Assembly (NCBI RefSeq): GCF_004343035.1
Contig: NZ_SMCQ01000001.1
Location: 307,671 to 371,670, forward strand
Length of the DNA stretch: 64,000 nucleotides
DNA from: Longibaculum muris
Lineage (GTDB): Bacteria; Bacillota_I; Bacilli_A; Erysipelotrichales; Coprobacillaceae
Direction: 5' to 3'
Shown: positions 13,343 to 35,278 of the stretch, in pieces
Numbering within the stretch: position 1 is the first letter of the stretch
How the letters are laid out: each line of letters begins with the position of its first letter
The notes under the pieces: model-generated
Told to the model about the DNA's origin: nothing
Databases searched by the model: none
What the model saw: the letters and a program-made list of their open reading frames with translations, nothing else
Program-made: the position numbers and the translations under genes

Positions 13343-14509
13343 ATGGAATTAAATGCATTGTCATTGTTCTCTAGTGCGGGGGTTGCAGAAACTTATTTTG
13401 AAAAACATGGAGTAAAAGTTAAAGTTGCTGCAGAGATTTTGCCTGAGAGAGTAAAAATATATAAACATCTTTACCCCACTGTAAACATGATTGAGGGCGA
13501 TATAACCGATAAAAAAATTTTTAAAAAGATTATGGATGCTGCAAAAAAAGAAAAATGTGATTTTTTAATAGCAACACCACCCTGTCAAGGTATGAGTACA
13601 GCTGGCAAAAAATTAAAAGATGACCCTAGAAACAGATTGATTATCAATGTTGTAGAAGCAATAAAAGAAATAAAACCGTTATTCGTAATAATTGAAAATG
13701 TGCCAGAAATTTTACAAACAAAAATTGAAATTAATGGTGAGTGGTTACTGATAGATTCATATTTGAATAATGAATTGAGTGAATTATATTCGTTTAATTG
13801 TAATAAAGTAGTTAATTCTATGTATTACAATGTTGCTCAATCAAGAGAACGTTGTGTTTATTTGTTGTCTCGAAGAGATACTCATATTAGATGGGAATTT
13901 CCCAAGCCATCTAATGATATTACTACTATGCGTGATGCGATTGGAGATTTGCCTTCATTAGATCCAGATGTTACTGATATAACAGAAGAAGAGAGAATTA
14001 AATTGTTTCCAGATTTTTATCAAAAAAAAGAAAATGGACTTAAAATTTCCAAATGGCATTATCCACCAAAACACAAATATAGACATGTAATAGCAATGAT
14101 GCATACACCAGAAGGTTGTTCGGCATGGAATAACGAAAAATATTATCCAAAGCTTTCAGATGGAACTAAATCAAAAGGGTATAAAAATACTTATAAAAGA
14201 CAATGGTGGGATAAACCAGCGTATACAGTTACTAAATATACTAGTCGCATAGGTTCGCAAGAAAATGGTCATCCTGGGCGAGCCTTGGTGGACTCTGATT
14301 TAGAAGAAGAAAGAATCTGGTCAGATGCAAGAGTTTTATCAATATTTGAATTAATGAGAGTTTCTTCTTTACCTGATGATTGGAATATACCTGAAACAGC
14401 AAGCAGTAACGTAATTAGAGAAATACTAGGTGAAGGTGTACCTCCAAGACTTTTGGAATATGCACTTGTAGAATTGGAGCGTATGATAGATGAAAACAAT
14501 AAAATTTAA
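13343..14509 (+). CDS. C5-cytosine DNA methyltransferase, LlaJI/BsuMI-type (first of pair)
   Basis: The 388-aa enzyme transfers a methyl group from SAM to C5 of cytosine. Motif I is ALSLFSSAG (6-13); motif IV is ATPPCQGMS with catalytic C81; IENV is motif VI; QSRERCVYLLSR is motif VIII. A C-terminal EILGEGVPPRLLEYAL is motif X-like. It is paralogous along its whole length to the next gene. Pairs of C5 enzymes generally serve one site with different strands, as in LlaJI (asymmetric site). Its 3' end overlaps the second methylase by 20 bp. Confidence 0.93.
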   Translation: MELNALSLFSSAGVAETYFEKHGVKVKVAAEILPERVKIYKHLYPTVNMIEGDITDKKIFKKIMDAAKKEKCDFLIATPPCQGMSTAGKKLKDDPRNRLIINVVEAIKEIKPLFVIIENVPEILQTKIEINGEWLLIDSYLNNELSELYSFNCNKVVNSMYYNVAQSRERCVYLLSRRDTHIRWEFPKPSNDITTMRDAIGDLPSLDPDVTDITEEERIKLFPDFYQKKENGLKISKWHYPPKHKYRHVIAMMHTPEGCSAWNNEKYYPKLSDGTKSKGYKNTYKRQWWDKPAYTVTKYTSRIGSQENGHPGRALVDSDLEEERIWSDARVLSIFELMRVSSLPDDWNIPETASSNVIREILGEGVPPRLLEYALVELERMIDENNKI

Positions 14510-15659
14510 AAATAGAGTTAAAGCACTTTCTTTATTTGCAAATGTAGGTATTGCTGAAACATATTTAGATGAGTTAGGAGTTGATGTTGTTGTTGCTAAT
14601 GAACTTTTAGAAGTTCGCTGTAATTTTTATAAGCATCTTTATCCAAATGTTAATGTGATTCAAGGAGATATTACTGAAGAAGATATATTTAATAAAGTTA
14701 TTCAAAAAGCGAAAGAATCACAGATTGAAATGGTAATTGCTACTCCTCCTTGTCAGGGAATGTCATGTGCTGGAAGAAAAGATCCAAAAGATCCACGAAA
14801 TTTTTTAGTCTATTATGCGGTTGAAGCCATTAAATTATTGAAGCCTAGATTCGTCATTATTGAAAATGTAACAATGCAGCAGCATACGCAAATACTGTAC
14901 AAAGATAAGTATGTATTTATACCAGAGTATATAGAAAATGAACTTGGTGAATATTACAGTTTTAATAAACAGCGTATAGTTAATGCAATGGATTATGGAG
15001 TTCCCCAATCGAGACAAAGATATATATATTTGCTTGTACGAAAAGATGAGAGTGTTACTTGGGAATTTCCTAAAAAAAACAATCATATTATAACACTTAA
15101 AGAAGCTATAGGAGATTTACCGTCATTAGATCCGTGCCTACGAGATGTTAATGAGAGATGGAGATTCCCGGATTATGAATTTAAGCGTATTGAAGGGTTG
15201 AAAGTATCTAAATGGCATTATCCTCCAGTTCATAGTTGGAAACAAGTTGAATGGATGATTCATACCCCAAGCGGAATGTCTGCTTTTAAAAACAAAATTT
15301 TCTATCCAATGACAAAAGGACGAAGAGTAAAAGGCGCACCAAGAACTTATATGAGAATGGACTGGGATAAGCCGGCAACGACCATTATGCAGAATAGTGG
15401 TGTAATTTCAGCGTTTTCGACTGTACATCCAGGAAGAATCATCAATGATTGTGATGATGAAAATCAGAGGTTTTATTCTGATGCACGAGCCCTAACCATC
15501 TATGAATTACTAATTTTATCATCTTTGCCACTTGATTGGAATATTCCAGAATGGGCAGATGATATACTGATTAGAAAAGTTATTGGTGAAGGGATACCAC
15601 CATTACTTATTAAAAAAGCAATTGAATCTCTTATTGTTGGAGGTAAATATGATAGGTAA
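14490..15659 (+). CDS. C5-cytosine DNA methyltransferase, LlaJI/BsuMI-type (second of pair)
   Basis: The 389-aa paralogue of the preceding enzyme has motif I ALSLFANVG, motif IV ATPPCQGMS with catalytic C88, motif VI IENV, motif VIII QSRQRYIYLLV and motif X EGIPPLLIKKAI. The two proteins align throughout (shared TYxxxxGV, YKHLYPxVN, KWHYPP and HPGR blocks) but differ in the segment between motifs VIII and IX that reads the target. The likely role is methylation of the opposite strand of the same site. It overlaps the McrB-like gene by 11 bp. Confidence 0.93.
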   Translation: MKTIKFKNRVKALSLFANVGIAETYLDELGVDVVVANELLEVRCNFYKHLYPNVNVIQGDITEEDIFNKVIQKAKESQIEMVIATPPCQGMSCAGRKDPKDPRNFLVYYAVEAIKLLKPRFVIIENVTMQQHTQILYKDKYVFIPEYIENELGEYYSFNKQRIVNAMDYGVPQSRQRYIYLLVRKDESVTWEFPKKNNHIITLKEAIGDLPSLDPCLRDVNERWRFPDYEFKRIEGLKVSKWHYPPVHSWKQVEWMIHTPSGMSAFKNKIFYPMTKGRRVKGAPRTYMRMDWDKPATTIMQNSGVISAFSTVHPGRIINDCDDENQRFYSDARALTIYELLILSSLPLDWNIPEWADDILIRKVIGEGIPPLLIKKAIESLIVGGKYDR

Positions 15660-18018
15660 ATTGACAATTGATAAATCAAGTATGAATTTAAGCTATTTTC
15701 TTTATACAATTATTATTATTTATGAAAAAGGTGGGAAAATATCTCGACATGATTTTGTTAATGAAATGGCTAAATTTGTAGGCGTTTCAGCTTTTCAAAA
15801 TAATAAAGAAAATAGAACAGCATATAACAAAAGCAAACTACCAAGATATTTTGGTTTTGTGGATATAATTCTTGACGAGAAAGAATTAAACTACTTGGTT
15901 CTAACTCATAGAGGTAGAATCTTGGTTGATTATATTTCTGATGCTGGCGATGGTGTTGCTCCTTCAGAAAGATTTTACATCTCTTTAAAACATAAAAAAG
16001 ATTTTATTGATTTAATTTTTGATAGTGTAATCTTTGATTCTTTTGGAAAAAATAACAGTGGTGCCGAGCAATCTAATACTGATGTTGAACCACCAAAAGT
16101 AGTTTTTAAGACTATACAAGAATTAGGAAATGCTACAGCGGAAGAAATTTGTTATGTAATGTTTGGATTAAATCGTGGTGAGTTTGACTCATTTGAAGAG
16201 GCCATTAATAAAGTCAAAGATAACCGCTCTAAATACATCTATGATTATGAAGATATCATTGATGAATGGGGTATCACAAATATTGTACATGATTGCAAAA
16301 TTATTAATATTTTTACTGATAACAATATATCTCTCCTTGTGAGCGAAAGGAATAAAGATAACGGTAAAATTTATTATCAGTTAAGCAGTTCATTAAGTGA
16401 TGTTCAAAAAGAGCAAATTAAAATTATTAGTGCTGTTTATGAGCCTATAAAACTTTTTGCATATACTCATGGAGATAAGAATTTAATTGAAAATTGGATT
16501 GAAGGATCGGTTTTAGGCAGGGTTAGTGACAATTCTCAAATTATAAAATATGACTTCAATTTAGGAATAGAAGGCTTTTGTACAAAAAAAGATAGTTCTG
16601 AATTTATGCCTGGAGCTTTCGAGAAGGCTGTATTGGAAGCATATAAAAATGAAAAGAAGAATATATATCTAGTTGTGACCAATATTACAGAATCCCTCTT
16701 CTTTAATACGATTTCAAGATATACATCTTTGTTGAAAAGAATTGATGAAGTGAAAAATCTTTTTCATGGGTGGTCTGCTGAACCACTATATGATGAAAAG
16801 TTTTACAAATGGCTAACAACAAAAAGTAATAGAGCGAGAAATATTTTACCTAAGGATAAGATATTATTGCCTTCAAATTTACAGATAGTGGGGACAATTA
16901 TTATGAATGAAGAAAATTCAAATACACAATTCGATTATAAATTTCGTAGATGTTTAGTGGATACAGAAAAGAGTGCAGTAACAGATGATAGCAATATGGA
17001 TGAATCATTAAGAGTTACAACAGGTGAAAATATCCTTTTATATGGAGTGCCTGGTTCTGGAAAAAGTTGGACTATTCAACATGAATACTGTGATGATGAG
17101 GAGTGTATGGAACGTTTAGTGTTCCATCCAGATTATATGTATTCCGATTTTGTTGGACAGATTCTTCCGGTGGTAAAGAGAGATGATGAAGGTAAGGAAA
17201 AGGTGAGATATGAGTTTAAACCTGGACCATTCACAAAGATTCTAAAGAAAGCCTATGAAGACCCAGAAAAATCTTATTACCTTGTAATTGAAGAAATTAA
17301 TAGAGGCAATGCACCTGCGATTTTTGGAGAAATTTTCCAGTTATTAGATAGGATGGATGAAGATAAGGATGGATACAAAAAAGGAACAAGCGAATATGGA
17401 ATAACCAATGAAAATATTGCTCTAGAAGTTTATGGAGATGTGGATACTAAAGTTCGTATACCATCTAATCTTTCTATCCTTGGGACAATGAATACATCCG
17501 ATCAGAATGTGTTCACATTGGATACTGCTTTCCAACGTAGATGGATAATGAGAATGATAAAGAATACTTTTTCTAATCATAAATATGCCAATAAAAAAAT
17601 CCTTGATACTAATGTTTCTTGGAAACAATTCTGTGAGGCAATTAACGACGAAATTTTAAGACGAAACAATGTAACTTCTTCAGAAGATAAACGTTTAGGC
17701 GCATACTTTGTTTCTGCAGATGATTTACTTCATATAAAAACACAAGATAACTCTTCAGAAAAACAAAAAATAGAAGCAGAACATAAAAATGCTCGTTTTG
17801 CAGAAAAAGTAATAAAGTATTTATGGGATGATGCATTTAAGTTTTCTCATCCTGATACTTTTGATACACGTAAATATAAAAGTTTAGAAAAAATAATTGA
17901 TGTGTTTAACTCTTCAAGTGAAGATGCTAGATTTGATGTATTTCATGAAAATCTAAGAAAACTAATTCTTGAGGGTGTTGAAGAAAATAATTCCGTTTCT
18001 GATGAAGATAATGAGTAG
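15649..18018 (+). CDS. McrB-like AAA+ restriction protein (LlaJI R1-like)
   Basis: The 789-aa protein has an N-terminal DNA-binding half (unassigned by sequence) and a C-terminal McrB-type AAA+ motor. Walker A is GVPGSGKS (about 466-473), Walker B with the family signature is LVIEEINRGN (about 545), and the sensor block is LGTMNTSDQN (about 611). Known McrB-type motors use GTP and drive a nuclease partner. A closely following McrC-like gene fits. ATG 15649 is set by GGAGG five bases upstream. In LlaJI the homologous R1 recognises the site through its N-terminal domain. Confidence 0.9.
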   Translation: MIGKLTIDKSSMNLSYFLYTIIIIYEKGGKISRHDFVNEMAKFVGVSAFQNNKENRTAYNKSKLPRYFGFVDIILDEKELNYLVLTHRGRILVDYISDAGDGVAPSERFYISLKHKKDFIDLIFDSVIFDSFGKNNSGAEQSNTDVEPPKVVFKTIQELGNATAEEICYVMFGLNRGEFDSFEEAINKVKDNRSKYIYDYEDIIDEWGITNIVHDCKIINIFTDNNISLLVSERNKDNGKIYYQLSSSLSDVQKEQIKIISAVYEPIKLFAYTHGDKNLIENWIEGSVLGRVSDNSQIIKYDFNLGIEGFCTKKDSSEFMPGAFEKAVLEAYKNEKKNIYLVVTNITESLFFNTISRYTSLLKRIDEVKNLFHGWSAEPLYDEKFYKWLTTKSNRARNILPKDKILLPSNLQIVGTIIMNEENSNTQFDYKFRRCLVDTEKSAVTDDSNMDESLRVTTGENILLYGVPGSGKSWTIQHEYCDDEECMERLVFHPDYMYSDFVGQILPVVKRDDEGKEKVRYEFKPGPFTKILKKAYEDPEKSYYLVIEEINRGNAPAIFGEIFQLLDRMDEDKDGYKKGTSEYGITNENIALEVYGDVDTKVRIPSNLSILGTMNTSDQNVFTLDTAFQRRWIMRMIKNTFSNHKYANKKILDTNVSWKQFCEAINDEILRRNNVTSSEDKRLGAYFVSADDLLHIKTQDNSSEKQKIEAEHKNARFAEKVIKYLWDDAFKFSHPDTFDTRKYKSLEKIIDVFNSSSEDARFDVFHENLRKLILEGVEENNSVSDEDNE

Positions 18019-18038
18019 ACACGAAAGGAGGAAAACTA

Positions 18039-19313
18039 ATGGACTTAGGTTTGAATTTAAAGGTCAGATGCCATATTAACGAAAATGGAGATGGTGATCG
18101 ATTTGTTGGAGTAAAAGCCGATACAAACAATGCTATGGTTTTCTTCCCAATGGGTTATCGTTTGCCGGATAATGAAGAAGATATAAGAGAAGATATTTTA
18201 AAACTTATAGATGTAATAGCTACATTTAATGATTCAACAGATAAGTTATTAGCGATGGAACAATTTGCTGCTCCACAATCAGTAAACTTTCCGATAAATG
18301 CCTATATGAATATAATTCGTTATTTTCTAGAACAAAATGATTATTACAAAGAAAGAGAACAAGTAAGGAAAACTTCTGATCGTGGAAAAATTGATTTTCC
18401 GACATCTTTAAGAAAAAATGTAAAGTTTTTTCAAGAAGATGGTTCACCATTTTTTGATAGATATACAGTAAAAGGTTCTAGTCCAAATGATAAGAATTTA
18501 ATTACTCAAATTCATAAGTATTGTGTGTATGAGGCCTTTAGTACCTTGGGATGGCTATTTAGTCCATTACCTATAAAAGACCCGCACATTACATTAGAGA
18601 AAGAACGATTTTTATATGCATTAAAGAAGAAATTAGCAATCACTCATAATGATAAAGATAAACGATTGTTTCAAGCGATGATTCAAATGCTAGAATATTT
18701 AGATTCCGAAGATGATAATAAGCAGTATTATTTTGGAACTGATAGATTTGAATATGTGTGGGAAAAACTCATAGATGAAGTTTTCGGAATTAGAGGTAAA
18801 GAAGAATTCTTTCCTAGAACGAAATGGAATCTTAAATTTAATGCTAATAAGAATAATCATGCACTTGAACCGGATAGTATTATGATGTGCAACGATAAAA
18901 TCTATGTTCTTGATGCTAAATATTATCGATATGGAGTCACTGGAAATCCACAGCATCTTCCAGAGTCATCATCAATTAATAAGCAAATTACATACGGAGA
19001 ATATATAGATAATTGTCGTGAATTAAAGGATAAATATGGAGATTTACCAATTTACAATGCATTTTTAATGCCATTTAATAAAGGTGAAAATCCATTCAAT
19101 GTTACAAATGATTATTTTCTTAATATAGGAGAAGCAACGGGAGAATGGAAAAATAACTCCAAATTGTATGAACACGTCCAAGGAATAGTAATTGACATTA
19201 GATTTCTAATGAACAATTATACAGGATCTCATAAGAGTAAGATAAGAAAACTTGCTCAAGCTATAGATGAGGCATTAGCTAAGAATAATGGGATGTTACC
19301 TAACGAAGATTAA
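18039..19313 (+). CDS. McrC-like PD-(D/E)xK nuclease (LlaJI R2-like)
   Basis: The 424-aa protein supplies the cutting activity to the McrB-like partner. A PD-(D/E)xK core is visible near residues 275-295: LEPDSIMM, then IYVLDAKYYRYG, with D, D and K in normal spacing. The upstream helical part matches McrC/DUF2357-type proteins. AAAGGAGG precedes the ATG, 20 bp after the McrB-like gene. It ends the operon. The original terminator just downstream has been split by an IS element. Confidence 0.88.
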   Translation: MDLGLNLKVRCHINENGDGDRFVGVKADTNNAMVFFPMGYRLPDNEEDIREDILKLIDVIATFNDSTDKLLAMEQFAAPQSVNFPINAYMNIIRYFLEQNDYYKEREQVRKTSDRGKIDFPTSLRKNVKFFQEDGSPFFDRYTVKGSSPNDKNLITQIHKYCVYEAFSTLGWLFSPLPIKDPHITLEKERFLYALKKKLAITHNDKDKRLFQAMIQMLEYLDSEDDNKQYYFGTDRFEYVWEKLIDEVFGIRGKEEFFPRTKWNLKFNANKNNHALEPDSIMMCNDKIYVLDAKYYRYGVTGNPQHLPESSSINKQITYGEYIDNCRELKDKYGDLPIYNAFLMPFNKGENPFNVTNDYFLNIGEATGEWKNNSKLYEHVQGIVIDIRFLMNNYTGSHKSKIRKLAQAIDEALAKNNGMLPNED

Positions 19314-19326
19314 ACAAAAACCAAGA

Positions 19327-20824
19327 GAGACTGTGAAAAAAAGTCTGTAAATTAGTAAAGAATATGAGCCTTCTGTGGTAAAATCAAATTATCATAGGAG
19401 GCTTTTAAAATGGCTAAGAAAAAAGAAGTTTACAAAGTAAAACCATTAAATGAAAACAAAAGAAATATCATTGCAGCTCTAATTGATGAATACGATATTG
19501 AGACAGCTGATGATATTCAAGAAGCTCTTAAAGATCTACTTGGTGGAACCATAAAATCCATGATGGAAGCAGAAATGGATGAACATCTAGGTTACGACAA
19601 ATATGAGCGTAGTAGCAATGAGAATTATCGTAACGGTACAAAACCGAAGAAAGTTCGCAGCTCATATGGAGAATTTGAACTTGCAGTTCCACAAGACAGA
19701 GATGGTACATTTGAACCACAGATTGTTAAAAAGCGTCAAAAGGACATCTCTGAAATTGATCAAAAGATAATATCAATGTACTCTAGAGGATTAACAACAA
19801 GACAAATTTCTGAGCAAATAGAAGAAATCTATGGTTTTGAATGTAGCGAAGGATTCATTTCAAACGTTACAGATAAGATTCTTCAGGATATTGAAGATTG
19901 GCAAAAGAGACCTTTAGATAGTGTATATCCGGTATTGTTCATAGATGCAGTCCATTTTTCCGTAAGACAAGATAATCTAATTAGAAAACTTGCAGCATAT
20001 GTAATATTAGGTATTGACTGTAATGGTATGAAAGACGTTATCAGTCTTCAGATAGGTGAAAATGAGAGCAGTAAATACTGGCTAGGAGTCTTAAACGAAC
20101 TTAAGAACAGAGGAGTTCAGGATGTAATGATAATATGTGCAGATGGACTTATTGGAATAAAAGAAGCTATTTCTACTGCATTTCCAAAAGCCGAGTACCA
20201 AAGATGTATTGTTCATATGGTCAGAAATACTCTAAAACATGTATCTTACAAGGATAAGAAAGCTTTTGCTACTGATTTAAAATCAATATATCTATCACCA
20301 ACCGAGTCATTAGGACATGAAAATCTGTTAGAAGTAAGAGCAAAATGGGATGATAAATATCCAGGAGCAATGAAACGTTGGGAAGAAAACTGGGATGTAA
20401 TATCTCCAATTTTTAAATTTTCTATGGATGTAAGAAAAATAATATATACAACAAATGCTATAGAAAGTCTAAATAGTACATACAAGAAATTAAATCGTCA
20501 AAGAAGTGTATTTCCAAGCGATAAAGCTTTGTTAAAGTCACTATATCTATCAACAATTCAGGCAACTAAGAAATGGTCTCAAGGGCTTAGAGGTTGGGGT
20601 AAAGTGTATGGAGAGTTTTCTATTATGTATCCTGATAGAATGCCCGATACCTTTTAGATTTGCTCTAAAATAGCTATCAAAAGACTCCATCAAAAGCGAT
20701 GGAGTCATTGACGTGCTAACTTTAATATTTTATATTATGGATAGCAAGGAACAATTTAAAAAGTTCCATATCAGTTAATACTAAACCACAGAAGGTTAAT
20801 TTACAGAAAAAACTTCACAGTCTC
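19327..20824 (+). mobile_element. IS256-family insertion sequence, intact
   Basis: The 1498-bp element is bounded by imperfect inverted repeats starting GAGACTGTGAA and containing CTGTAAATTA about 10 bp further in. It is flanked by a perfect 8-bp duplication AACCAAGA (19319-19326 and 20825-20832). The only gene is a full-length Mutator-type transposase. A perfect hairpin GACTCCATC-6-GATGGAGTC (20683-20706) follows the gene and may stop transcription. The clean duplication suggests a recent insertion. Confidence 0.93.
19410..20657 (+). CDS. IS256-family (Mutator-type) transposase
   Basis: The 415-aa DDE transposase has all three acidic residues in context: LFIDAVHFSV, IICADGLIG and TTNAIESLNS. 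The C/H block YQRCIVHMVRNTLKHV is typical of the family. Its length matches intact IS256 relatives and no frameshift is seen, so it is probably active. ATAGGAGG precedes the ATG. Confidence 0.95.
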   Translation: MAKKKEVYKVKPLNENKRNIIAALIDEYDIETADDIQEALKDLLGGTIKSMMEAEMDEHLGYDKYERSSNENYRNGTKPKKVRSSYGEFELAVPQDRDGTFEPQIVKKRQKDISEIDQKIISMYSRGLTTRQISEQIEEIYGFECSEGFISNVTDKILQDIEDWQKRPLDSVYPVLFIDAVHFSVRQDNLIRKLAAYVILGIDCNGMKDVISLQIGENESSKYWLGVLNELKNRGVQDVMIICADGLIGIKEAISTAFPKAEYQRCIVHMVRNTLKHVSYKDKKAFATDLKSIYLSPTESLGHENLLEVRAKWDDKYPGAMKRWEENWDVISPIFKFSMDVRKIIYTTNAIESLNSTYKKLNRQRSVFPSDKALLKSLYLSTIQATKKWSQGLRGWGKVYGEFSIMYPDRMPDTF

Positions 20825-20869
20825 AACCAAGATAAGTGGATTTAACCACTTGTCTTGGTTATTTTTTTT
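20825..20869 (+). terminator. Operon terminator rebuilt at the IS right flank
   Basis: AACCAAGATAAGTGG (20825-20839) pairs over 15 bp (one G-U) with 20846-20860, followed by A and eight T. The left-arm start AACCAAGA is the IS target duplication, so the hairpin originally followed the McrC-like gene directly at 19319. It also overlaps the stop codon of the convergent reverse gene. Confidence 0.9.
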
Positions 20870-22046
20870 GTCTCATTCTATAACTTCTTACATTACTTGC
20901 ATTTCTACAGTCATCGCAACAGTATTTCTTTCTACTATTTGATGTTTTAACAAGAAAGAAGTTTGTACAAGAAGGATTAGCACACTTTCTATATATTTCT
21001 GATTTTGGTTTCATATAAAAAAGTGAAAAATATAATGCCGTTAATAGATTAGGAGCTTTCCATGTTGGCTCAAGAGTGTTTGGATTGTATATTGGCCTCA
21101 TCTTTGAAACATGCTGATTTATTTCTTTTGATAGAACATATTTGCCGATAAGTAATAATCCTTTTTTCATATTGTCATCAAGAGTGTAATTTGAATCACT
21201 TTTATAGAATTCAATTCCAGAGTCGAATGTTACATTTTTAATAACACCATTACTATGCATAAAATGAAATAAAAAATCGATTATTAATCTTTGAATCTTA
21301 GACACGTTATGACAGTTTTTGTATGCAATAGTAATCTTTCTGTATTGTGAGTCATTAATTCCTGGATAAGAATACATAAAGGTTTCCCCAGTTGAAATAT
21401 CCTCATATTCATCTACACGTAAATTATAGTTCTTCTCATATATACTATCTAGAATAACATAGTAATCTTCATCATCTATAGTGATACATTTACTAGAATT
21501 TTCTACGATTACGGAATCTATTGTGTCAAAAACAGAATCACGGTATCCAGTATAGTTCTGGTTATCGGATATTTTCATTTTTATTTGTGGAGAGAGTAGC
21601 AAGTACAAAGTTAACTGTAAAATAATTTCATAATTAATTGAGGTATTTTGTAATTCATTCATGAGAAGTAATGCAGCTTTAATATGATAGGTTATTTGAA
21701 TCAGCTGATTAAAATCAATAATATTTGATTCATTAGTTGGTAATCTGAAGAAATAGCCATACTCTTCAAAAAATTTCAATAGTGCTTTTGCATTGTTAGA
21801 AGGAAGTGATAAAAATTTACCAAGAATATTGTCATGAGTAATAGAACCACATTTAGTAGTTAAACATAAACCATTATTTCCACTAAAAGAAAAGTAATTT
21901 TTCTCACCATCGCTACATGAAATAGTAAGGACATTTTTTGAGTTTGTATTGCTATCACTATTTTTTTGTATTTCAAAAAGGCATTTTTGTCCAATAAAAG
22001 AAAAGTAATCATTACTTAAATTAAAAAAATTTTCATTATTTGTCAT
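20859..22046 (-). CDS. Zinc-finger (CGNR-like) protein, candidate prophage regulator
   Basis: The 395-aa protein has a long N-terminal region of mixed helices with no recognised family. It ends in a zinc-binding module: CANPSCTNFF (C-x4-C), KKYCCDDCRN and an Arg-rich tail, as in CGNR-type zinc fingers of bacterial regulators. It is divergent from the phage early operon. Three copies of ACTTACATT and two partial ones lie between, overlapping both promoters. This is the position of a phage repressor, but no XRE repressor is present here. Other roles, such as abortive infection, cannot be excluded. Confidence 0.6.
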   Translation of the reverse strand: MTNNENFFNLSNDYFSFIGQKCLFEIQKNSDSNTNSKNVLTISCSDGEKNYFSFSGNNGLCLTTKCGSITHDNILGKFLSLPSNNAKALLKFFEEYGYFFRLPTNESNIIDFNQLIQITYHIKAALLLMNELQNTSINYEIILQLTLYLLLSPQIKMKISDNQNYTGYRDSVFDTIDSVIVENSSKCITIDDEDYYVILDSIYEKNYNLRVDEYEDISTGETFMYSYPGINDSQYRKITIAYKNCHNVSKIQRLIIDFLFHFMHSNGVIKNVTFDSGIEFYKSDSNYTLDDNMKKGLLLIGKYVLSKEINQHVSKMRPIYNPNTLEPTWKAPNLLTALYFSLFYMKPKSEIYRKCANPSCTNFFLVKTSNSRKKYCCDDCRNASNVRSYRMRQKK

Positions 22047-22116: not shown

Positions 22117-22232
22117 GTAAGTGAAATGTTATTGATAAATATATTTTAACACTTACATTATGGTGATGCAATGCTTATATATATTATAAAACAGAAAAAT
22201 GTAAGTGATTATGTAAGAAATTTACTTACATT
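22117..22232. promoter_or_regulatory. ACTTACATT operator cluster
   Basis: Perfect 9-mers ACTTACATT or its complement occur at 22151-22159, 22198-22206 and 22224-22232, with partial copies at 22117-22127 and 22211-22217. Those at 22151 and 22224 overlap the reverse and forward promoters respectively. The layout resembles a repressor switch. Confidence 0.65.
22143..22171 (-). promoter_or_regulatory. Promoter of the reverse zinc-finger gene
   Basis: On the minus strand TTGCAT (22171-22166), 17-bp spacer, TAAAAT (22148-22143). One ACTTACATT operator sits in the spacer. Confidence 0.6.
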
Positions 22233-22249
22233 TTGCTAAAGCTTATACT
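22221..22249 (+). promoter_or_regulatory. Early promoter of the prophage
   Basis: TTTACT (22221-22226), 17-bp spacer, TATACT (22244-22249). The -35 box overlaps an ACTTACATT operator. Transcription would enter a leader of about 230 nt before the first protein gene. Confidence 0.55.
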
Positions 22250-22362
22250 ATCCGTAGAGTTAGTTAACTACTCAAAAAATAAAAATAACTCAAGCCTAAT
22301 TACGTAATACGGCGCGAGGATACAAATATTGAGCCATTCACTAAATCAGTGAAAGGTGAAAA

Positions 22363-22437
22363 TTGATGTACCCTAATTTCGTCATGCGTAAAAAATGGCC
22401 ATAAGAGTCGGTACATCAAAGTATCGGCTCATTTTTT
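22363..22437 (+). promoter_or_regulatory. Transcription attenuator of the phage early operon
   Basis: A terminator stem GAGTCGGTAC/GTATCGGCTC (22405-22414 with 22421-22430, all paired with G-U, 6-nt loop) is followed by six T. Its left arm overlaps GGTACATCAA (22410-22419), which is perfectly complementary over 10 bp to TTGATGTACC (22363-22372). Only one of the two helices can form at a time. The upstream arm contains the start codon of a short leader ORF, so translation should decide the outcome. Confidence 0.7.
22366..22404 (+). CDS. Leader peptide MYPNFVMRKKWP
   Basis: The 12-codon ORF starts at ATG 22366 with AAAGGTGAA six bases upstream. Its TAA (22402-22404) directly abuts the terminator stem starting at 22405. 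A hairpin TTCACT-5-AGTGAA (22337-22353) precedes the ribosome binding site. The tight fit to the attenuator supports a regulatory leader peptide. Expression is not shown. Confidence 0.5.
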   Translation: MYPNFVMRKKWP

Positions 22438-22478
22438 GTCCTCGTTCGAGTTAACCAAATCAACAGAAAAGCGAGGAC
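22438..22478 (+). promoter_or_regulatory. Inverted repeat masking the ribosome binding site
   Basis: GTCCTCG (22438-22444) is perfectly complementary to CGAGGAC (22472-22478), which contains the GAGGA ribosome binding site of the gene starting at 22484. Pairing would hide it. Confidence 0.55.
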
Positions 22479-22483
22479 AAAAT

Positions 22484-23101
22484 ATGAAAATTTACAAGAC
22501 AAGCTCAAAGAAAAGAGATACTTACACTTACACATTTACTGGAATTGATGGTAGAGAAGAAAAAATCGTTCTTCGTCCTGGAGAAAACGGGGTAACTGAG
22601 GCTTACATCAAAACACTTCATGCATTAGATGACAGTGAGGTTTATTACAACAATAAAAACTCAAAACCAGAGCGAACTCCAGAAGAAAAAACTGAAATCA
22701 AGGAATGGACTAGAAAGTTTATCGAAGAAGAAACTGCTAGAAGAGGAGAGGCTCCATCAGAATATGAAGTTGCTTATAAGGTAGAAGAAAGATTCCCTAA
22801 AAATTACAACCTATCACTTGAATATGATTTTGGTAGTGATGAATTAGATACCGATTTTGATAAGAGCCGTCTTTTATACCAATTAGCGGTTAACCCAAAT
22901 TATGAGGATAGTGAAGATACAGAAAGAGTGCGTGAACTTATTGAAGAACTTACGGACAAGCAAAAGAAAGTAATTAAAAAGGTATTGTATGAAGAAATGA
23001 ACTTCACTCAGATTTCAAAGGAAATGAAAATCAGTGTCAAGAATGTTTCAAAGCATTATAACAACGCATTAAATTACATCGAAAAAAACTTTTTTAAATA
23101 A
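22484..23101 (+). CDS. Phage transcription factor with sigma-70 region 4-like HTH
   Basis: The 205-aa protein starts at ATG 22484 after GCGAGGA. The N-terminal half is variable and charged. The last 60 residues (IEELTDKQKKVIKKVLYEEM, then FTQISKEMKISVKNVSKHYN) form a sigma-70 region 4-like helix-turn-helix. Similar early proteins in Bacillota prophages open the DUF2800/DUF2815 replication operon and are annotated as sigma-like. It may recruit polymerase to later phage promoters. Confidence 0.7.
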   Translation: MKIYKTSSKKRDTYTYTFTGIDGREEKIVLRPGENGVTEAYIKTLHALDDSEVYYNNKNSKPERTPEEKTEIKEWTRKFIEEETARRGEAPSEYEVAYKVEERFPKNYNLSLEYDFGSDELDTDFDKSRLLYQLAVNPNYEDSEDTERVRELIEELTDKQKKVIKKVLYEEMNFTQISKEMKISVKNVSKHYNNALNYIEKNFFK

Positions 23102-23112
23102 AACCTCCTTAA

Positions 23113-23149
23113 GGGGTAAAATTTGAGCCATTTTCTTTGCCTGTTACTT
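23113..23149 (+). promoter_or_regulatory. Repeated phage motif, copy 1
   Basis: GGGGTAAAA (23113-23121), 10 variable bases, TTTCTTTGCCTGTTACTT (23132-23149). Two other copies with identical spacing lie at 27630-27666 and 57493-57529. It lies 12 bp after a stop codon and 39 bp before the next start. It is a regulatory DNA or RNA element; no protein is encoded by it. Confidence 0.7.
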
Positions 23150-23184
23150 GTAAGGGGCAACACCTTACAGAAAGCGAGGTAAGG
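23150..23184 (+). promoter_or_regulatory. Competing hairpins over a ribosome binding site
   Basis: CCTTAC (23163-23168) can pair with GTAAGG upstream (23150-23155) or with GTAAGG downstream (23179-23184). The downstream copy contains the ribosome binding region of the gene at 23188. The two helices exclude each other. Confidence 0.5.
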
Positions 23185-23187
23185 AAA

Positions 23188-23391
23188 ATGGCAATGAAAC
23201 ACAAAATCACAATCAATGTTTCAGACCCCAACGGAAAGAAAGCCAATGTCCTAAAAGCAGCAGATATGCGTTTGCCATCAAGAATTGCACGATTCTTGTT
23301 TGGTGACTTTACACAAGTGTATTTGCTTGCTCCAGGACAGACGGTTGAGTCCGTTAATGTCAAAGAACTAAAGGAAGGAGGAAATGCTTAA
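23188..23391 (+). CDS. Small conserved phage protein of unknown function
   Basis: The 67-aa basic protein (MAMKHKITINVSDPNGKKAN...) has alternating beta-type sequence and a central RLPSRIARFLFGDF. ATG 23188 is chosen over an upstream start at 23137, which would run through the repeated motif. It overlaps the next gene by one base. It lies at the head of the phage replication operon; no function recognised. Confidence 0.6.
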   Translation: MAMKHKITINVSDPNGKKANVLKAADMRLPSRIARFLFGDFTQVYLLAPGQTVESVNVKELKEGGNA

Positions 23392-23681
23392 TGAGTAAAT
23401 CAAGCGAGTTAGCAGTACAGGTTAAACAGTTAAAGCAATGTGGCGAAATGCTTATTGGTATAGCAGATAGTCTTTCACAGCTATTTTCTTCAGATGAAGA
23501 AAAACAAACACCAAAGAAGGTTTTTACATTTGAAGAAGTGCGAGGAGTTCTTGCTGCTAAATCAAGAGAAGGTCATACAGCTGAAATTAAAGCAATTCTT
23601 ACCGAATTTGGTGTAGAAAAACTTTCAGATGTGGATCCATCAAAGTATGAAGAACTATTGCAAAAAGTGGAGGTGATGTAA
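23391..23681 (+). CDS. Small phage protein of the replication operon
   Basis: The 96-aa protein has an N-terminal helical part, a charged linker and a C-terminal 45 residues (TFEEVRGVLAAKSREGHTAE, then ILTEFGVEKLSDVDPSKYEE). The latter resemble the small helical domain of phage proteins that precede DUF2800 nucleases, sometimes labelled rrp5-like. Possibly an accessory of single-strand-binding or recombination proteins. Its start overlaps the previous stop (TAATG). Confidence 0.6.
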   Translation: MSKSSELAVQVKQLKQCGEMLIGIADSLSQLFSSDEEKQTPKKVFTFEEVRGVLAAKSREGHTAEIKAILTEFGVEKLSDVDPSKYEELLQKVEVM

Positions 23682-24812
23682 ATGGCAGCACACGCATTAT
23701 TGTCTGCATCATCTAGTCACCGCTGGATTAACTGTCCGCCATCAGCAAAACTTAATGCAGAGGCAGAAAAAGTAAATTGTGAAACAAATAGTGAATATGC
23801 AAAGCAAGGTACTGATGCCCATGCTCTTTGCGAATACAAATTAAAGATTGCAATTGGTATGGAAAGCACTGACCCTACAGAGAACCTTAGTTTCTATGAC
23901 GAAGAAATGGAACGATGTGCAGAAGAATACAAAAACTTTTGCTTATCTGTAAATCAAGAAACACAGAAAACTTGTAAAGACCCAGTTATTCTTATCGAAG
24001 AAAAACTTGATTTTTCAAATTATGTTCCTAACGGATTTGGAACTGGCGACTGTGTAATCATTGGAGATGGAACTCTTCATGTAATTGATTATAAGCATGG
24101 TCAAGGTGTAGAAGTATTAGCTGACCATAACCCTCAAATGATGTGTTACGCATTAGGTGCATTGAATTTGTACGATGGAATTTATGATATTGATAATGTT
24201 TCAATGACTATCTTTCAACCAAGAAGAGAAAACATCAGTACATTCGTTATGGAAAAAGATGGACTCTATACTTGGGCAGAAACAGTTCTTGCACCAAGAG
24301 CAAAATTAGCCTTTGATGGCGAAGGTGAATTTATGGCAGGAGATCATTGTAGATTTTGCAAGGTCAAAGCAACTTGTAGAAAACGCATGGAACAAAACAT
24401 GGGACTTGCAAAGTATGATTTTGAAATGCCTGTAACATTAGAAGATGCTGAGATTTCAATTGTTCTTTCAAAAGTAGATGAACTTGTATCATGGGCAACT
24501 GATGTTAAAGAGTATGCACTTCAGCAAGCAATGAGTGGTGTTCATTATGACGGATTTAAAGTAGTTGAAGGTCGCAGTGTTCGCAAGTATACCGATGAAG
24601 AAAAAGTAGCAGAAACTGTTATTAGTAATGGACAAAATCCATATGAAAAGAAATTGTTAGGAATAACAGCTATGACTGCACTTCTTGGTAAGAAGCAATT
24701 TAATGAATTATTAGGTGATTTGGTTTACAAGCCAGAAGGCAAACCAACACTTGTTCCAGAAAGTGATAAACGTCCGGAAATCAAAACAGCAAAAGAAGAT
24801 TTTAATGACTAA
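23682..24812 (+). CDS. DUF2800 phage nuclease, Cas4/RecB-like
   Basis: The 376-aa protein has the PD-(D/E)xK core TGDCVIIGDG...VIDYKHGQG (about 120-140) and cysteines at both ends of the fold: NCPPS near residue 18, and HCRFCKVKATC near 222-231. This is the 4Fe-4S arrangement of Cas4/AddB-type exonucleases. It probably resects phage DNA ends for recombination, working with the DUF2815 protein downstream. Start ATG 23682 follows GGAGGTGATG. Confidence 0.85.
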   Translation: MAAHALLSASSSHRWINCPPSAKLNAEAEKVNCETNSEYAKQGTDAHALCEYKLKIAIGMESTDPTENLSFYDEEMERCAEEYKNFCLSVNQETQKTCKDPVILIEEKLDFSNYVPNGFGTGDCVIIGDGTLHVIDYKHGQGVEVLADHNPQMMCYALGALNLYDGIYDIDNVSMTIFQPRRENISTFVMEKDGLYTWAETVLAPRAKLAFDGEGEFMAGDHCRFCKVKATCRKRMEQNMGLAKYDFEMPVTLEDAEISIVLSKVDELVSWATDVKEYALQQAMSGVHYDGFKVVEGRSVRKYTDEEKVAETVISNGQNPYEKKLLGITAMTALLGKKQFNELLGDLVYKPEGKPTLVPESDKRPEIKTAKEDFND

Positions 24813-24827
24813 TAGGAGGAAAAGAAT

Positions 24828-25391
24828 ATGTCAAAATTTAATAACCCAATGAAAGTAATTACAGGGCCTAACACAAGATGGAGCTATGCAAATGTCTGGG
24901 AGCCAAAAAGTATCAATGGTGGTGCTCCAAAGTATAGTGTCAGTCTTATCATTCCAAAATCAGATAAGACAACAGTGGATAAAATCAATGCTGCAATTAA
25001 GGCAGCTTATGAAGAAGGTCAATCAAAACTTAAAGGCAATGGTAGAAGTGTTCCTGCACTTTCTGCAATCAAGACACCACTTCGTGACGGAGACCTTGAA
25101 AGGCCAGACGATGAAGCATATGCAAATAGTTATTTCATCAATGCCAACTCTCCATCAGCACCTGGAATTGTAGATGCCGATAGAAATATAATCATTGACC
25201 GCAGTGAAGTATATAGTGGCGTTTATGGACGTGCATCAATCAGTCTTTATGCATTCAATTCAAATGGAAATAAAGGAATTGCTTGTGGCCTTAACAATCT
25301 TCAGAAGATTAAAGACGGAGAGCCACTTGGTGGTAAATCACGTGCTGAGGATGACTTTGCGACAGACGTAGATGATGATTTCTTATCTTAA
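24828..25391 (+). CDS. DUF2815 phage single-strand DNA-binding protein
   Basis: The 187-aa protein begins with TGPNTRWSYANVWEPKSING and contains KYSVSLIIPKSDK and GVYGRASISLYAFNSNGNKG. It ends in an acidic tail (DDFATDVDDDFLS) like those used by SSBs to bind partners. DUF2815 proteins are OB-fold ssDNA binders. It sits between the Cas4-like nuclease and the polymerase in a fixed order seen in many Bacillota phages. Confidence 0.88.
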   Translation: MSKFNNPMKVITGPNTRWSYANVWEPKSINGGAPKYSVSLIIPKSDKTTVDKINAAIKAAYEEGQSKLKGNGRSVPALSAIKTPLRDGDLERPDDEAYANSYFINANSPSAPGIVDADRNIIIDRSEVYSGVYGRASISLYAFNSNGNKGIACGLNNLQKIKDGEPLGGKSRAEDDFATDVDDDFLS

Positions 25392-25412
25392 GAAAGGGTT
25401 TAGGTGAAAAAT

Positions 25413-25574
25413 ATGGAATTTTTAGAGACAATCATTTTATTTGTATGTATATTAGCATGGACGAGTTTAAGTATTGTTTTGTTAATTGATAACGTTCAAG
25501 GTTTTATCTTTGATAGAAGACGAGAAAAAAGAGAACTTGAGTATCATGAAGAACGTATGAAAAGTTTGAAATAA
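25413..25574 (+). CDS. Small single-span membrane protein
   Basis: The 53-aa protein has one hydrophobic helix (about 5-25, IILFVCILAWTSLSIVLLI) followed by a strongly charged helix (RRREKRELEYHEERMK). ATG 25413 or the in-frame GTG 25404 can use AAAGGGTTTAGG. It fills the gap between the DUF2815 and polymerase genes. It could anchor the replication machinery at the membrane or act in superinfection immunity; neither is shown. Confidence 0.6.
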   Translation: MEFLETIILFVCILAWTSLSIVLLIDNVQGFIFDRRREKRELEYHEERMKSLK

Positions 25575-25632
25575 TGTAGGTTTGGCGGTAGGAGAAATCT
25601 TACCGTCTTACTTTTTAGGAAGGTGGCAAGAA

Positions 25633-27615
25633 ATGAAAAGACTAAATTTGGATTTGGAAACATACTCAGATGTTGATTTGCAGAAATGCGGTGTCTATAA
25701 GTATGTGGAGTCAGATAACTTTGAAATTTTATTATTTGCATATTCGGTTGATGGAAGTGAAGTAACTGTGGTTGATTTGGCTCAAGGAGAAGAAATCCCT
25801 CTAGAAATTATTAAAGCATTAACTGATGAAGATATTACAAAATGGGCTTTTAATGCTAATTTTGAAAGAATCTGTTTATCCGAATATTTACGAAGATTTT
25901 ATGAAAATGAATTTACATCATACAGTATTTTAGAAGATACAGTTGGTGATTATCTTGACCCTATATCATGGAAATGTTCTATGGTTTGGTCAGCGTATAT
26001 GGGACTTCCTTTATCACTTGCAGGAGCAGGTGCAGTATTAGGATTATCAGAACAAAAGATGACAGAAGGGAAGGAGCTCATCCGATATTTTTGTGTTCCA
26101 TGTAAAGCTACGAAAGTGAATGGTGGAAGAACCAGAAATCTACCAATTCACGATAAAGCAAAGTGGGAGTTATTTAAGAAATATAACAAAAGAGATGTTG
26201 AGGTAGAAATGGCTATACAAGAAAAACTTTCTAAGTTCCCAGTACCGGATTTCATTTGGGAAGAATATCATCTTGATCAGGAAATCAATGATAGAGGAAT
26301 TGCTCTTGATTTAGATATGGTAAAGAATGCTATTGCTTTTGATGAAAAGTCTAAAGCAGTACTGTCACATAAAATGCAAGAGTTAACAGGTCTTGAAAAT
26401 CCTAACTCAGTTATGCAAATGAAAGAGTGGCTTTCAAATAACGGATTAGAGATGGATAGTCTTGGCAAAAAGGAAGTGGTAGCAGTATTAAAAACAGTGA
26501 AAGAACCACTTAAAACTGTACTTGAGTTAAGACAGAAGCTTTCAAAATCCTCAGTTAAGAAATATAGGGCAATGGAAAATGCTGTATGCAGAGATGGAAG
26601 AGCAAGAGGAATGTTCATGTTTTATGGAGCCAATCGAAGTGGGAGATGGGCAGGCAGACTTATTCAATTACAGAATCTTCCTCAAAATCACATGTCAGAT
26701 TTAGCAGAGGCACGAGGGCTTGTAAAGGATGGAAATTATGATGCTATGAATATGCTTTACGATGATATACCGGATACTTTATCGCAGCTTATTCGCACCG
26801 CCTTCGTACCAAGAAAAGATATGAAATTTATAGTATCTGATTTTTCTGCAATTGAAGCTAGAGTGTTATCTCATCTAGCAGGAGAAAAATGGAGAGCTGA
26901 GGTTTTTGCAAATGGTGGTGACATCTACTGCGCATCGGCAAGTCAGATGTTTGGCGTTACGGTAGAAAAGCATGGTCAAAATGCTCATTTAAGACAAAAA
27001 GGGAAAATCGCAGAATTAGCACTTGGCTATGGAGGTTCTGTTGGAGCTTTAAAAGCTATGGGAGCCCTTGATATGGGACTTAACGAAGAAGAATTGCAAC
27101 CTCTTGTGAATATGTGGAGAGAGGCAAATCCTAATATCATTAAATTTTGGTGGGATGTTGATCGTGCGGTAAAAAAAGCAGTTATTGAAAGAACACCATC
27201 TAAAATTGGAGATATCAGTTTTTTCTATAAAAGTGGAATACTTTTTATTGAACTTCCAAGTGGCAGAAGACTTTCCTATGTAAAACCCAAGATGGGAGTA
27301 AATCAGTTTGGGAGTGAATCTGTCACTTATGAAGGTGTAGGTGGAACTAAGAAATGGGAAAGAATCGAAAGTTATGGACCGAAGTTTGTAGAGAATATCG
27401 TACAAGCAATTAGCAGAGATATATTAATGTATGCCATCAGAACTTTATCTCATTGTTTTATCGTAGGTCATGTTCATGATGAATTGATTATTGAATGCAG
27501 TAAAGATGTTTCGCTTGATGATATTTGTAAGCAAATGGGAAGAACCCCACCTTGGATTTCCGGTATTTTACTTCGTGCAGATGGATATGAAACAGAATTT
27601 TATAAAAAAGATTAA
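25633..27615 (+). CDS. Phage DNA polymerase, family A
   Basis: The 660-aa enzyme has a 3'-5' exonuclease domain (LDLETYSD at 5-12; NANFE) and the family A palm. Motif A is DFSAIEARVLSHLAGE (about 402), motif B contains KGKIAELALGYGG (about 455), and motif C is HDELIIE (about 614). No 5' nuclease domain is present, as usual for phage enzymes. AGGAAGGTGG precedes ATG 25633. It replicates the phage genome with the primase-helicase downstream. Confidence 0.93.
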   Translation: MKRLNLDLETYSDVDLQKCGVYKYVESDNFEILLFAYSVDGSEVTVVDLAQGEEIPLEIIKALTDEDITKWAFNANFERICLSEYLRRFYENEFTSYSILEDTVGDYLDPISWKCSMVWSAYMGLPLSLAGAGAVLGLSEQKMTEGKELIRYFCVPCKATKVNGGRTRNLPIHDKAKWELFKKYNKRDVEVEMAIQEKLSKFPVPDFIWEEYHLDQEINDRGIALDLDMVKNAIAFDEKSKAVLSHKMQELTGLENPNSVMQMKEWLSNNGLEMDSLGKKEVVAVLKTVKEPLKTVLELRQKLSKSSVKKYRAMENAVCRDGRARGMFMFYGANRSGRWAGRLIQLQNLPQNHMSDLAEARGLVKDGNYDAMNMLYDDIPDTLSQLIRTAFVPRKDMKFIVSDFSAIEARVLSHLAGEKWRAEVFANGGDIYCASASQMFGVTVEKHGQNAHLRQKGKIAELALGYGGSVGALKAMGALDMGLNEEELQPLVNMWREANPNIIKFWWDVDRAVKKAVIERTPSKIGDISFFYKSGILFIELPSGRRLSYVKPKMGVNQFGSESVTYEGVGGTKKWERIESYGPKFVENIVQAISRDILMYAIRTLSHCFIVGHVHDELIIECSKDVSLDDICKQMGRTPPWISGILLRADGYETEFYKKD

Positions 27616-34495: not shown

Positions 34496-35278
34496 ATGAT
34501 TGAAAAAGTAAATCCAAAACATCCAGATAAAATCGCAGATAGAATTGCAGGAGCAATTGTCGATTTAGCTTATGCAAAAGAAGATAATCCAAAGATTGCA
34601 GTTGAAGTGTTAATCGGACATGGTATGTGCCATGCGATTATTGAAACATCAGCTGTTCTTGATGAAAAAGATATTGAAGATGTAATCACTCGTATTGCTG
34701 GGAATGTTACTCCCGATATAGTGATTGTTCCTCAAGATACACATCTTGCTAAGAATCAAGAAGAGAAAATCAAGTGTGGAGATAACGGAATCTTCAAAGG
34801 TGTACCTTTAACAACTGAACAAAAAATGCTATCCGTTATTGCAAATGAAATCTACGATGCATATCCATATGATGGAAAGTACATTCTTAATGGCGATAGA
34901 CTTATTATTTGTCAAAGTAATGCAAAAACTACAGATTTAAAATCTACATATCCAAATGCTCAAATCAATCCTCTTGGTGATTGGACTGGTGGAACTGATG
35001 TTGATACAGGTGCAACTAACAGAAAACTTGGTTCTGATATGGGAGATTCACTTACTGGAGGAGGACTTCATGGTAAGGATTTATCAAAAGCAGATGTATC
35101 TGTAAATATATATGCATTCTTAAAAGCACAAGAAACAGGAAAAACTGTGAATCTTGTTTGTGCAATTGGTGATGATACGATTGATGGAAAACCGTATAGT
35201 GAAATCGTTGAAATCGCAAGAGAGTATATTCACTCTGTTGGAGGGTTTGAGAAATTTGCAGAATGGGGTCTTTTTTAG
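34496..35278 (+). CDS. Compact phage S-adenosylmethionine synthetase-like protein
   Basis: The 260-aa protein is clearly related to MetK but only about two thirds of the bacterial length. Visible family blocks are HPDKIADRIAGAIVD, CGDNGIFKG (GDQG region), SDMGDSLTGGGLHGKDLSKA (the GGGAFSGKD loop) and VNLVCAIG. The N-terminal SESVSEG stretch is missing. It is followed at once by two DNA methyltransferase genes, so it may supply SAM for modification of phage DNA, or it may be an inactive binder. Start ATG 34496 follows GGAAGAT. Confidence 0.82.
   Translation: MIEKVNPKHPDKIADRIAGAIVDLAYAKEDNPKIAVEVLIGHGMCHAIIETSAVLDEKDIEDVITRIAGNVTPDIVIVPQDTHLAKNQEEKIKCGDNGIFKGVPLTTEQKMLSVIANEIYDAYPYDGKYILNGDRLIICQSNAKTTDLKSTYPNAQINPLGDWTGGTDVDTGATNRKLGSDMGDSLTGGGLHGKDLSKADVSVNIYAFLKAQETGKTVNLVCAIGDDTIDGKPYSEIVEIAREYIHSVGGFEKFAEWGLF

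What the first reader, a model, noticed from the sequence alone, without database searches (positions are those of the whole stretch)
22363..22484. Leader-peptide attenuator in front of the phage early operon
Seen: a 12-codon ORF with a good ribosome binding site ends exactly one base before a 10-bp terminator stem with a U-tract. A perfect 10-bp antiterminator (TTGATGTACC with GGTACATCAA) excludes the terminator and contains the leader start codon. A further repeat then masks the next ribosome binding site. Known: this is the architecture of translation-coupled attenuation. Inference: the lytic operon is gated by host translation status or a drug/amino-acid signal.
Basis: partly seen in the sequence, partly recalled or inferred. 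Interest (0 to 1): 0.75.

Follow-up and report, generated by a model that had tools for sequence, protein, structure and literature searches.

The report
Phage double-lock RNA switch, trigger unknown
In front of a sigma-factor-like gene that opens a prophage's early operon lies a folded RNA, shared by many phages and absent from the Rfam catalogue, that can take two competing shapes and appears to lock the gene twice (by stopping transcription and by hiding its ribosome binding site); what opens the lock is not known.

Summary
The sequence features are real: a 12-codon ORF, a 10-bp terminator with six Us, a perfect 10-bp antiterminator and a masked ribosome binding site. The reading as a leader-peptide attenuator does not hold as the general mechanism. 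The stretch is one member of a conserved structured RNA, not in Rfam, found upstream of sigma-70-region-4-like genes in prophages and phages of Clostridia-type hosts, Gardnerella and Atopobium. Across relatives the leader start codon is often missing or directly preceded by a stop, while the RNA pairings persist and covary. Six segments pair in two exclusive ways. OFF: A:B long hairpin, C:D terminator, E:F hides the ribosome binding site. With mechanically cut segments from 31 diverged members, all five pairings beat swapped partners (z -6 to -11, 0/5000), while ten other segment pairs do not. OFF is mildly favoured by the energies, so a trigger that opens the OFF hairpin is inferred; it is unknown. 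Logic like B. subtilis trp/TRAP and tlrB leaders, but a new RNA family. No expression data.

The parts
22221..22249 (+). Putative early promoter (-35 TTTACT 22221-22226, -10 TATACT 22244-22249), start of transcript near 22256
   Evidence: 9 of 12 consensus matches, spacer 17; consensus match only: 6 such sites found in the region against 3.0 +/- 2.1 in shuffles
22150..22231 (.). Operator-like repeats ACTTACAT/ATGTAAGT overlapping the putative promoter
   Evidence: inverted repeats I3, I8, I11, I12; inferred repressor sites, not tested
22294..22399 (+). OFF hairpin: P1/P2 outer helices and A:B (22317-22324 with 22367-22374), apical hairpin 22337-22353
   Evidence: MFE; homologous hairpin conserved, A:B covaries z -8.2, P1/P2 12/2000
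22309..22328 (+). Segment A, pairs with B (OFF) or E (ON)
22363..22372 (+). Segment B, 5' arm of antiterminator; contains the leader start codon
   Evidence: perfect 10-bp repeat with C; covariation 95% paired vs 62% swapped, 0/20000
22366..22404 (+). 12-codon ORF MYPNFVMRKKWP, not conserved in the RNA family
22405..22437 (+). Intrinsic terminator: C arm 22405-22414, D arm 22421-22430, U-tract 22432-22437
   Evidence: C:D covaries
22410..22419 (+). Segment C, 3' arm of antiterminator
22432..22448 (+). Segment E, pairs with F (RBS masked) or A (RBS free)
   Evidence: E:F z -8.0, A:E z -9.6; window A:E duplex 12 bp, -15.3 kcal/mol
22471..22482 (+). Segment F with Shine-Dalgarno GAGGA (22473-22477)
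22484..23101 (+). Target gene: sigma-70 region-4-like phage regulator (205 aa)
   Evidence: Pfam PF04545 1.3e-7, phrog_1740 4.7e-15, FliA profile match 2.5e-9
23188..27615 (+). Rest of early operon start: phrog_7234, phrog_408, DUF2800/exonuclease, Gp2.5-like ssDNA-binding protein, DNA polymerase
   Evidence: for the first four; DNA polymerase by position and by the annotation of relatives NatCom_43819 and TPDSL_ph1

Best explanation
A conserved, default-OFF, two-output RNA switch in the leader of the phage early transcript. As the leader is made, segment A (22309-22328) pairs with B (22363-22372) inside a long hairpin; C is then free to form the terminator with D, and any transcript that leaks past the terminator folds E onto F, hiding the Shine-Dalgarno of the sigma-like gene. 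If something prevents or opens the A:B hairpin, B takes C (antiterminator), the terminator cannot form, and the released A takes E, which frees the ribosome binding site. One decision is thus read out twice, so a leak at one lock is caught by the other. Shown: the five pairings and their mutual exclusivity in sequence, conservation and covariation; position in front of a sigma-like early gene. Inferred: transcription from the upstream promoter, OFF as default, the regulatory effect. Unknown: the trigger; most likely a trans-acting protein (phage or host) or a small molecule acting on the long hairpin, since the leader ORF is not conserved.
For: Homologous leaders found in front of homologous genes in many phages and prophages. 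Swap test with alignment-defined segments, 25 members: A:B 17/2000, B:C, C:D, A:E, E:F 0/2000, ten other segment pairs not significant. The same with mechanically cut segments, 31 members below 80% identity: A:B z -8.2, B:C -6.1, C:D -11.0 (C:D selected by the way segments were cut), A:E -9.6, E:F -8.0, all 0/5000; controls |z| at most 2.9 and that one in the wrong direction. B:C 8-mers 95% paired vs 62% when swapped, with several pair types at every position. A:E averages 16 bp. Forbidding A:B and C:D makes most members fold into B:C plus A:E together. At the decision point (C made, D not) A:B is favoured in 21 of 25, median 4.4 kcal/mol, 1.3 in the window; once E is made but not F the window's MFE is the ON fold. 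No Rfam match. Downstream gene is sigma-like in every member tested except one truncated remnant, L087.
Against: No transcript, termination or reporter data. Promoter is only a consensus match. In the window A:E is weaker than in most members (12 bp, -15.3 kcal/mol) and the constrained ON fold of the full leader keeps E:F. Some members (L068, L069, L071) have weak terminators without a clean U-tract, and L004 and L012 have little terminator at all, so the transcriptional lock is not universal. A first fixed-position version of the unbiased test was badly windowed and gave mixed results. No universal unpaired, sequence-conserved pocket was recognised across the deep clades, so a ligand-binding site is not evident.
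Confidence: 0.75

Rival explanations
1. Leader-peptide attenuation: ribosome stalling or speed on MYPNFVMRKKWP decides between terminator and antiterminator, as in tlrB of B. subtilis.
For: In the window, and in L018, L063, L087 and (deep clades, read by eye) L248, L264, L298, an ORF starting at B ends just before C; a ribosome on it would melt the 3' strand of the OFF hairpin. The window peptide carries an RKK, which fits the R/K-X-R/K macrolide stall motif described for tlrB (PMC6851288).
Against: 10 of 26 diverged members lack an in-frame start; six have a TAG right before the AAG-TAC codons; others stop after 3-4 codons or run through the terminator; peptide ends differ.
Confidence: 0.12
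2. Passive double attenuator: no ligand; the two folds simply set a fixed, low expression level or a delay (by co-transcriptional kinetics) for the sigma-like gene.
For: The two folds are close in energy and the deep clades share pairing logic but little sequence in the hairpin loops.
Against: Within the main clade the 5' strand GCCTGATTAGCTATAGGG is nearly invariant although its partner varies, which suggests recognition by something; a fixed low level could be had with far less RNA.
Confidence: 0.2
3. Autoregulation: the sigma-like protein encoded just downstream binds the OFF hairpin and shuts its own synthesis.
For: The RNA was found in front of this gene family only; an unrelated Rfam RNA (DUF2800) sits in the same slot in other phages, so the gene seems to need RNA-level control.
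Against: No RNA-binding domain recognised; the conserved C-terminal domain is a DNA-type sigma region 4; not tested. This is one possible identity of the trigger, not independent of the best explanation.
Confidence: 0.1
4. Ordinary terminator plus chance repeats, no switch.
For: Intrinsic terminators and RBS hairpins are common.
Against: Covariation of five specific pairings, 0/5000 each, while ten other pairs of the same segments show nothing.
Confidence: 0.02

Closest known systems
B. subtilis trpEDCFBA leader (TRAP)
   Same: Terminator/antiterminator choice plus long-distance refolding that masks or frees the Shine-Dalgarno of the first gene (PMC11255114)
   Different: TRAP binds (G/U)AG repeats; no such protein or site identified here; phage early operon, different sequence and layout
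B. subtilis tlrB (yxjB) leader
   Same: Combines transcription attenuation with an SD-sequestering hairpin; readthrough transcripts stay silent (PMC6851288)
   Different: Driven by tylosin stalling on a conserved 9-codon leader peptide; here the leader ORF is not conserved
Rfam RF02960 DUF2800 RNA
   Same: Cis-regulatory RNA in front of the same phage gene family; occupies the same slot in L003 and L035 by covariance model, and in similar-looking loci L022, L025, L056, L064, L065 by eye
   Different: Different consensus structure and sequence; none of the members of this RNA that were scanned matches its model
Riboswitches with dual expression platforms
   Same: Two exclusive folds control termination and ribosome access (general knowledge)
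   Different: No aptamer or ligand identified; no match to any Rfam riboswitch

Membership tests
Ribosome-mediated (leader-peptide) attenuator | Conserved short ORF with start codon overlapping the switch and a stop near the terminator | tested here: not met
   In-frame start in 16 of 26 members; TAG before the frame in six; variable ends
Ribosome-mediated (leader-peptide) attenuator | Mutually exclusive terminator and antiterminator | tested here: met
Rfam DUF2800 RNA (RF02960) | Match to the covariance model at the gathering score | tested here: not met
   Window: not among matches up to E=10; L002, L004, L005, L012, L018, L037 no match while L003 and L035 score 77-79 bits
Any known Rfam riboswitch or leader | Match to one of 4227 families at gathering score | tested here: not met
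Riboswitch (ligand-binding aptamer with expression platform) | Two exclusive folds controlling expression signals | tested here: met
   (sequence and covariation level; effect on expression not measured)
Riboswitch (ligand-binding aptamer with expression platform) | Specific small-molecule binding by the RNA | not testable with these tools
   Needs in-line probing or transcription assays
TRAP-type dual attenuator | Terminator control coupled to SD sequestration through one refolding | tested here: met
   A:B/B:C and A:E/E:F competition covaries
TRAP-type dual attenuator | Array of (G/U)AG repeats bound by TRAP | not tested
   No such array was looked for systematically; none stood out in the leader

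The most novel reading that the evidence does not exclude
An orphan phage riboswitch or protein-sensing RNA, widespread in phages of gut and vaginal Gram-positive bacteria, that senses a host or phage signal and gates entry into the early programme through two coupled locks on a sigma-like regulator.
Probability: 0.45. Interest if true: 0.82.

Novelty: new variant of a known kind. Interest (0 to 1): 0.64.

Why it matters
Phage lysis-lysogeny control is usually described through repressor proteins. Here a conserved RNA appears to gate the first gene of the early operon at two levels, in phages of Clostridia-type hosts, Gardnerella and Atopobium. The conserved family gives concrete base pairs to break and restore, and an obvious open question (what opens it) that can be tested in vitro.

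Tried and rejected
Leader peptide as the conserved feature: rejected. DUF2800 RNA membership: rejected. Any Rfam family for the leader or its upstream part: none; weak microRNA hits are chance. RNAalifold on the first alignment returned mainly the B:C pairing, so swap tests were used instead. A fixed-position window version of the covariation test mixed segments C, D and E and was replaced by terminator-anchored cutting. Pair counting on a spacer-joined alignment failed because the aligner shifted rows; counted by script instead. Search of plasmids with a member RNA found nothing. Resemblance of the 5' strand to 16S rRNA or tRNA was considered from memory and not pursued. Structure of the sigma-like protein was predicted with moderate confidence (pLDDT 66) and matches sigma factors well only in the C-terminal domain.

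Full report
Observation. The ORF at 22366-22404, the terminator at 22405-22437, the perfect inverted repeat 22363-22372/22410-22419 and the repeat masking the next ribosome binding site are all found mechanically, and the 261-nt leader folds 6.1 standard deviations better than shuffled sequence. One small correction: the stem begins directly after the stop codon.

Setting. The stretch lies in a prophage, between a gene on the minus strand with a CGNR zinc finger (20859-22046) and an operon that starts with a sigma-70-region-4-like gene (22484-23101) followed by two small conserved phage proteins, a DUF2800 exonuclease and a Gp2.5-like ssDNA-binding protein and, by analogy with annotated relatives, a DNA polymerase. 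A weak promoter match at 22221-22249 overlaps operator-like repeats, which fits an early lytic promoter, but this is inference.

Relatives. Searching with the sigma-like protein brought homologous loci from viral contigs and genomes. Their upstream regions share a striking core: AAGCCTGATTAGCTATAGGGC..TGGGATAC, a variable hairpin, GAAGTACC..TTATTTTCCTATG, then a terminator whose 5' arm is GGTACTTC, then a second hairpin over the ribosome binding site. Pattern and model searches extended the family: 45 distinct sequences in the first collection, members in Terrisporobacter and Ruminococcus phages, Anaerococcus, Gardnerella and Atopobium prophages, and a second copy elsewhere in the same genome, on a contig listed as a separate virus. 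More distant clades (L248, L257, L262, L263, L264, L278, L288, L298, and L012 from Allofustis) keep the layout with very different letters. In about 800 genomes of the host's class and phylum the model rang in only a handful, as expected for a phage element.

The two folds. Writing out the complementarities gave six segments, A to F. OFF: A:B (with outer helices P1/P2), C:D terminator, E:F over the Shine-Dalgarno. I tested all pairings by asking whether a segment pairs better with its own partner than with the partner taken from another member. With segments cut by alignment columns (25 members): A:B 17/2000 permutations as good as native, P1/P2 12/2000, B:C, C:D, A:E and E:F 0/2000; none of ten other segment pairs was significant. 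With a mixed set in which the deep members were cut by hand: z -6.9 to -10.1 for the five pairings; that set carries selection bias. With fully mechanical cutting anchored on the terminator (31 members under 80% identity): A:B z -8.2, B:C -6.1, C:D -11.0 (biased, because the terminator was found by self-complementarity), A:E -9.6, E:F -8.0, all 0/5000, and the ten controls between z -1.9 and +2.9. For B:C, 95% of cells in 20 hand-registered 8-mers are standard pairs against 62% after swapping, 0/20000. An earlier fixed-position version was mis-windowed and is not used. Permutation of related sequences is not a strict probability, but relatedness affects the controls equally.

Energetics. When A:B and C:D are forbidden most members fold into B:C plus A:E together. 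At the moment when C is made but D is not, the A:B fold is favoured in 21 of 25 members, median 4.4 kcal/mol; in the window 1.3 kcal/mol. In the window's growing transcript the predicted minimum-energy fold is OFF at the terminator, ON once E is made, and OFF again once F is made. So the RNA is poised, with OFF mildly favoured. That OFF is the cellular default is inferred.

Leader peptide. In the window the ORF looks good, but across 26 members an in-frame start upstream of the conserved TAC codon exists in only 16; six members have GATAGAAGTACC or GATAGAGGTACC, with TAG directly before the frame; L004 and L233 stop after 3-4 codons; several run through the terminator. The RNA, not the peptide, is conserved. 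A lineage-specific leader peptide remains possible.

Comparison. Coupling of attenuation with Shine-Dalgarno sequestration is known from the TRAP-controlled trp leader (PMC11255114) and from tlrB (PMC6851288). This RNA works like those, but it matches no Rfam family and its trigger is unidentified. The Rfam DUF2800 RNA occupies the same slot in some relatives (L003, L035) with a different structure. Literature searches found no description of this RNA; the library holds only part of the literature, and one large survey of microbiome RNAs (PMC8040213) lists thousands of candidates whose tables could not be checked, so prior detection under another label cannot be excluded.

Verdict. A real, conserved, two-state leader RNA with two coupled outputs; new family, known kind of logic; trigger unknown.

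Noticed in passing
G000:C4:82794-82944 (L231): Second copy of the same RNA elsewhere in the same genome (on a contig listed as a separate virus, L237), in front of a shorter sigma-like gene (phrog_11138) like those of Ruminococcus phages.
   Followed up: partly
L003:2801-2962, L035:4801-4962: Rfam DUF2800 RNA sits in the same slot, upstream of the same sigma-like gene, suggesting exchangeable RNA regulators at this position.
   Followed up: partly
L081, L078, L092, L109, L070, L257, L278, about 30-100 nt upstream of P1: A further structured element (stem like TGACAT..ATGTG.CA competing with a GTGCC-AGA-GGCAC hairpin) precedes the switch in several clades; L018, L054, L063, L002, L248 have a different one. 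Possible upstream modules.
   Followed up: partly
L087:7300-7530: A truncated remnant: the RNA's terminator half is kept but the sigma-like gene does not follow, and the next gene resembles the window ORF at 34496-35278 (similar N-terminus, S-adenosylmethionine-synthetase-like by eye).
   Followed up: no
window 14490-19313: ORFs next to the prophage include a LlaJI-type restriction endonuclease (18039-19313, Pfam match) and, by inspection only, a cytosine methyltransferase-like ORF and an AAA-ATPase-like ORF.
   Followed up: no
window 19410-20657: Mutator-family transposase between the restriction locus and the prophage early region.
   Followed up: no
window 23110-23190: The next intergenic gap (before the phrog_7234 gene) also has a small inverted repeat over the ribosome binding site and a TTGAGCCATT stretch like that at 22329-22338.
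   Followed up: no
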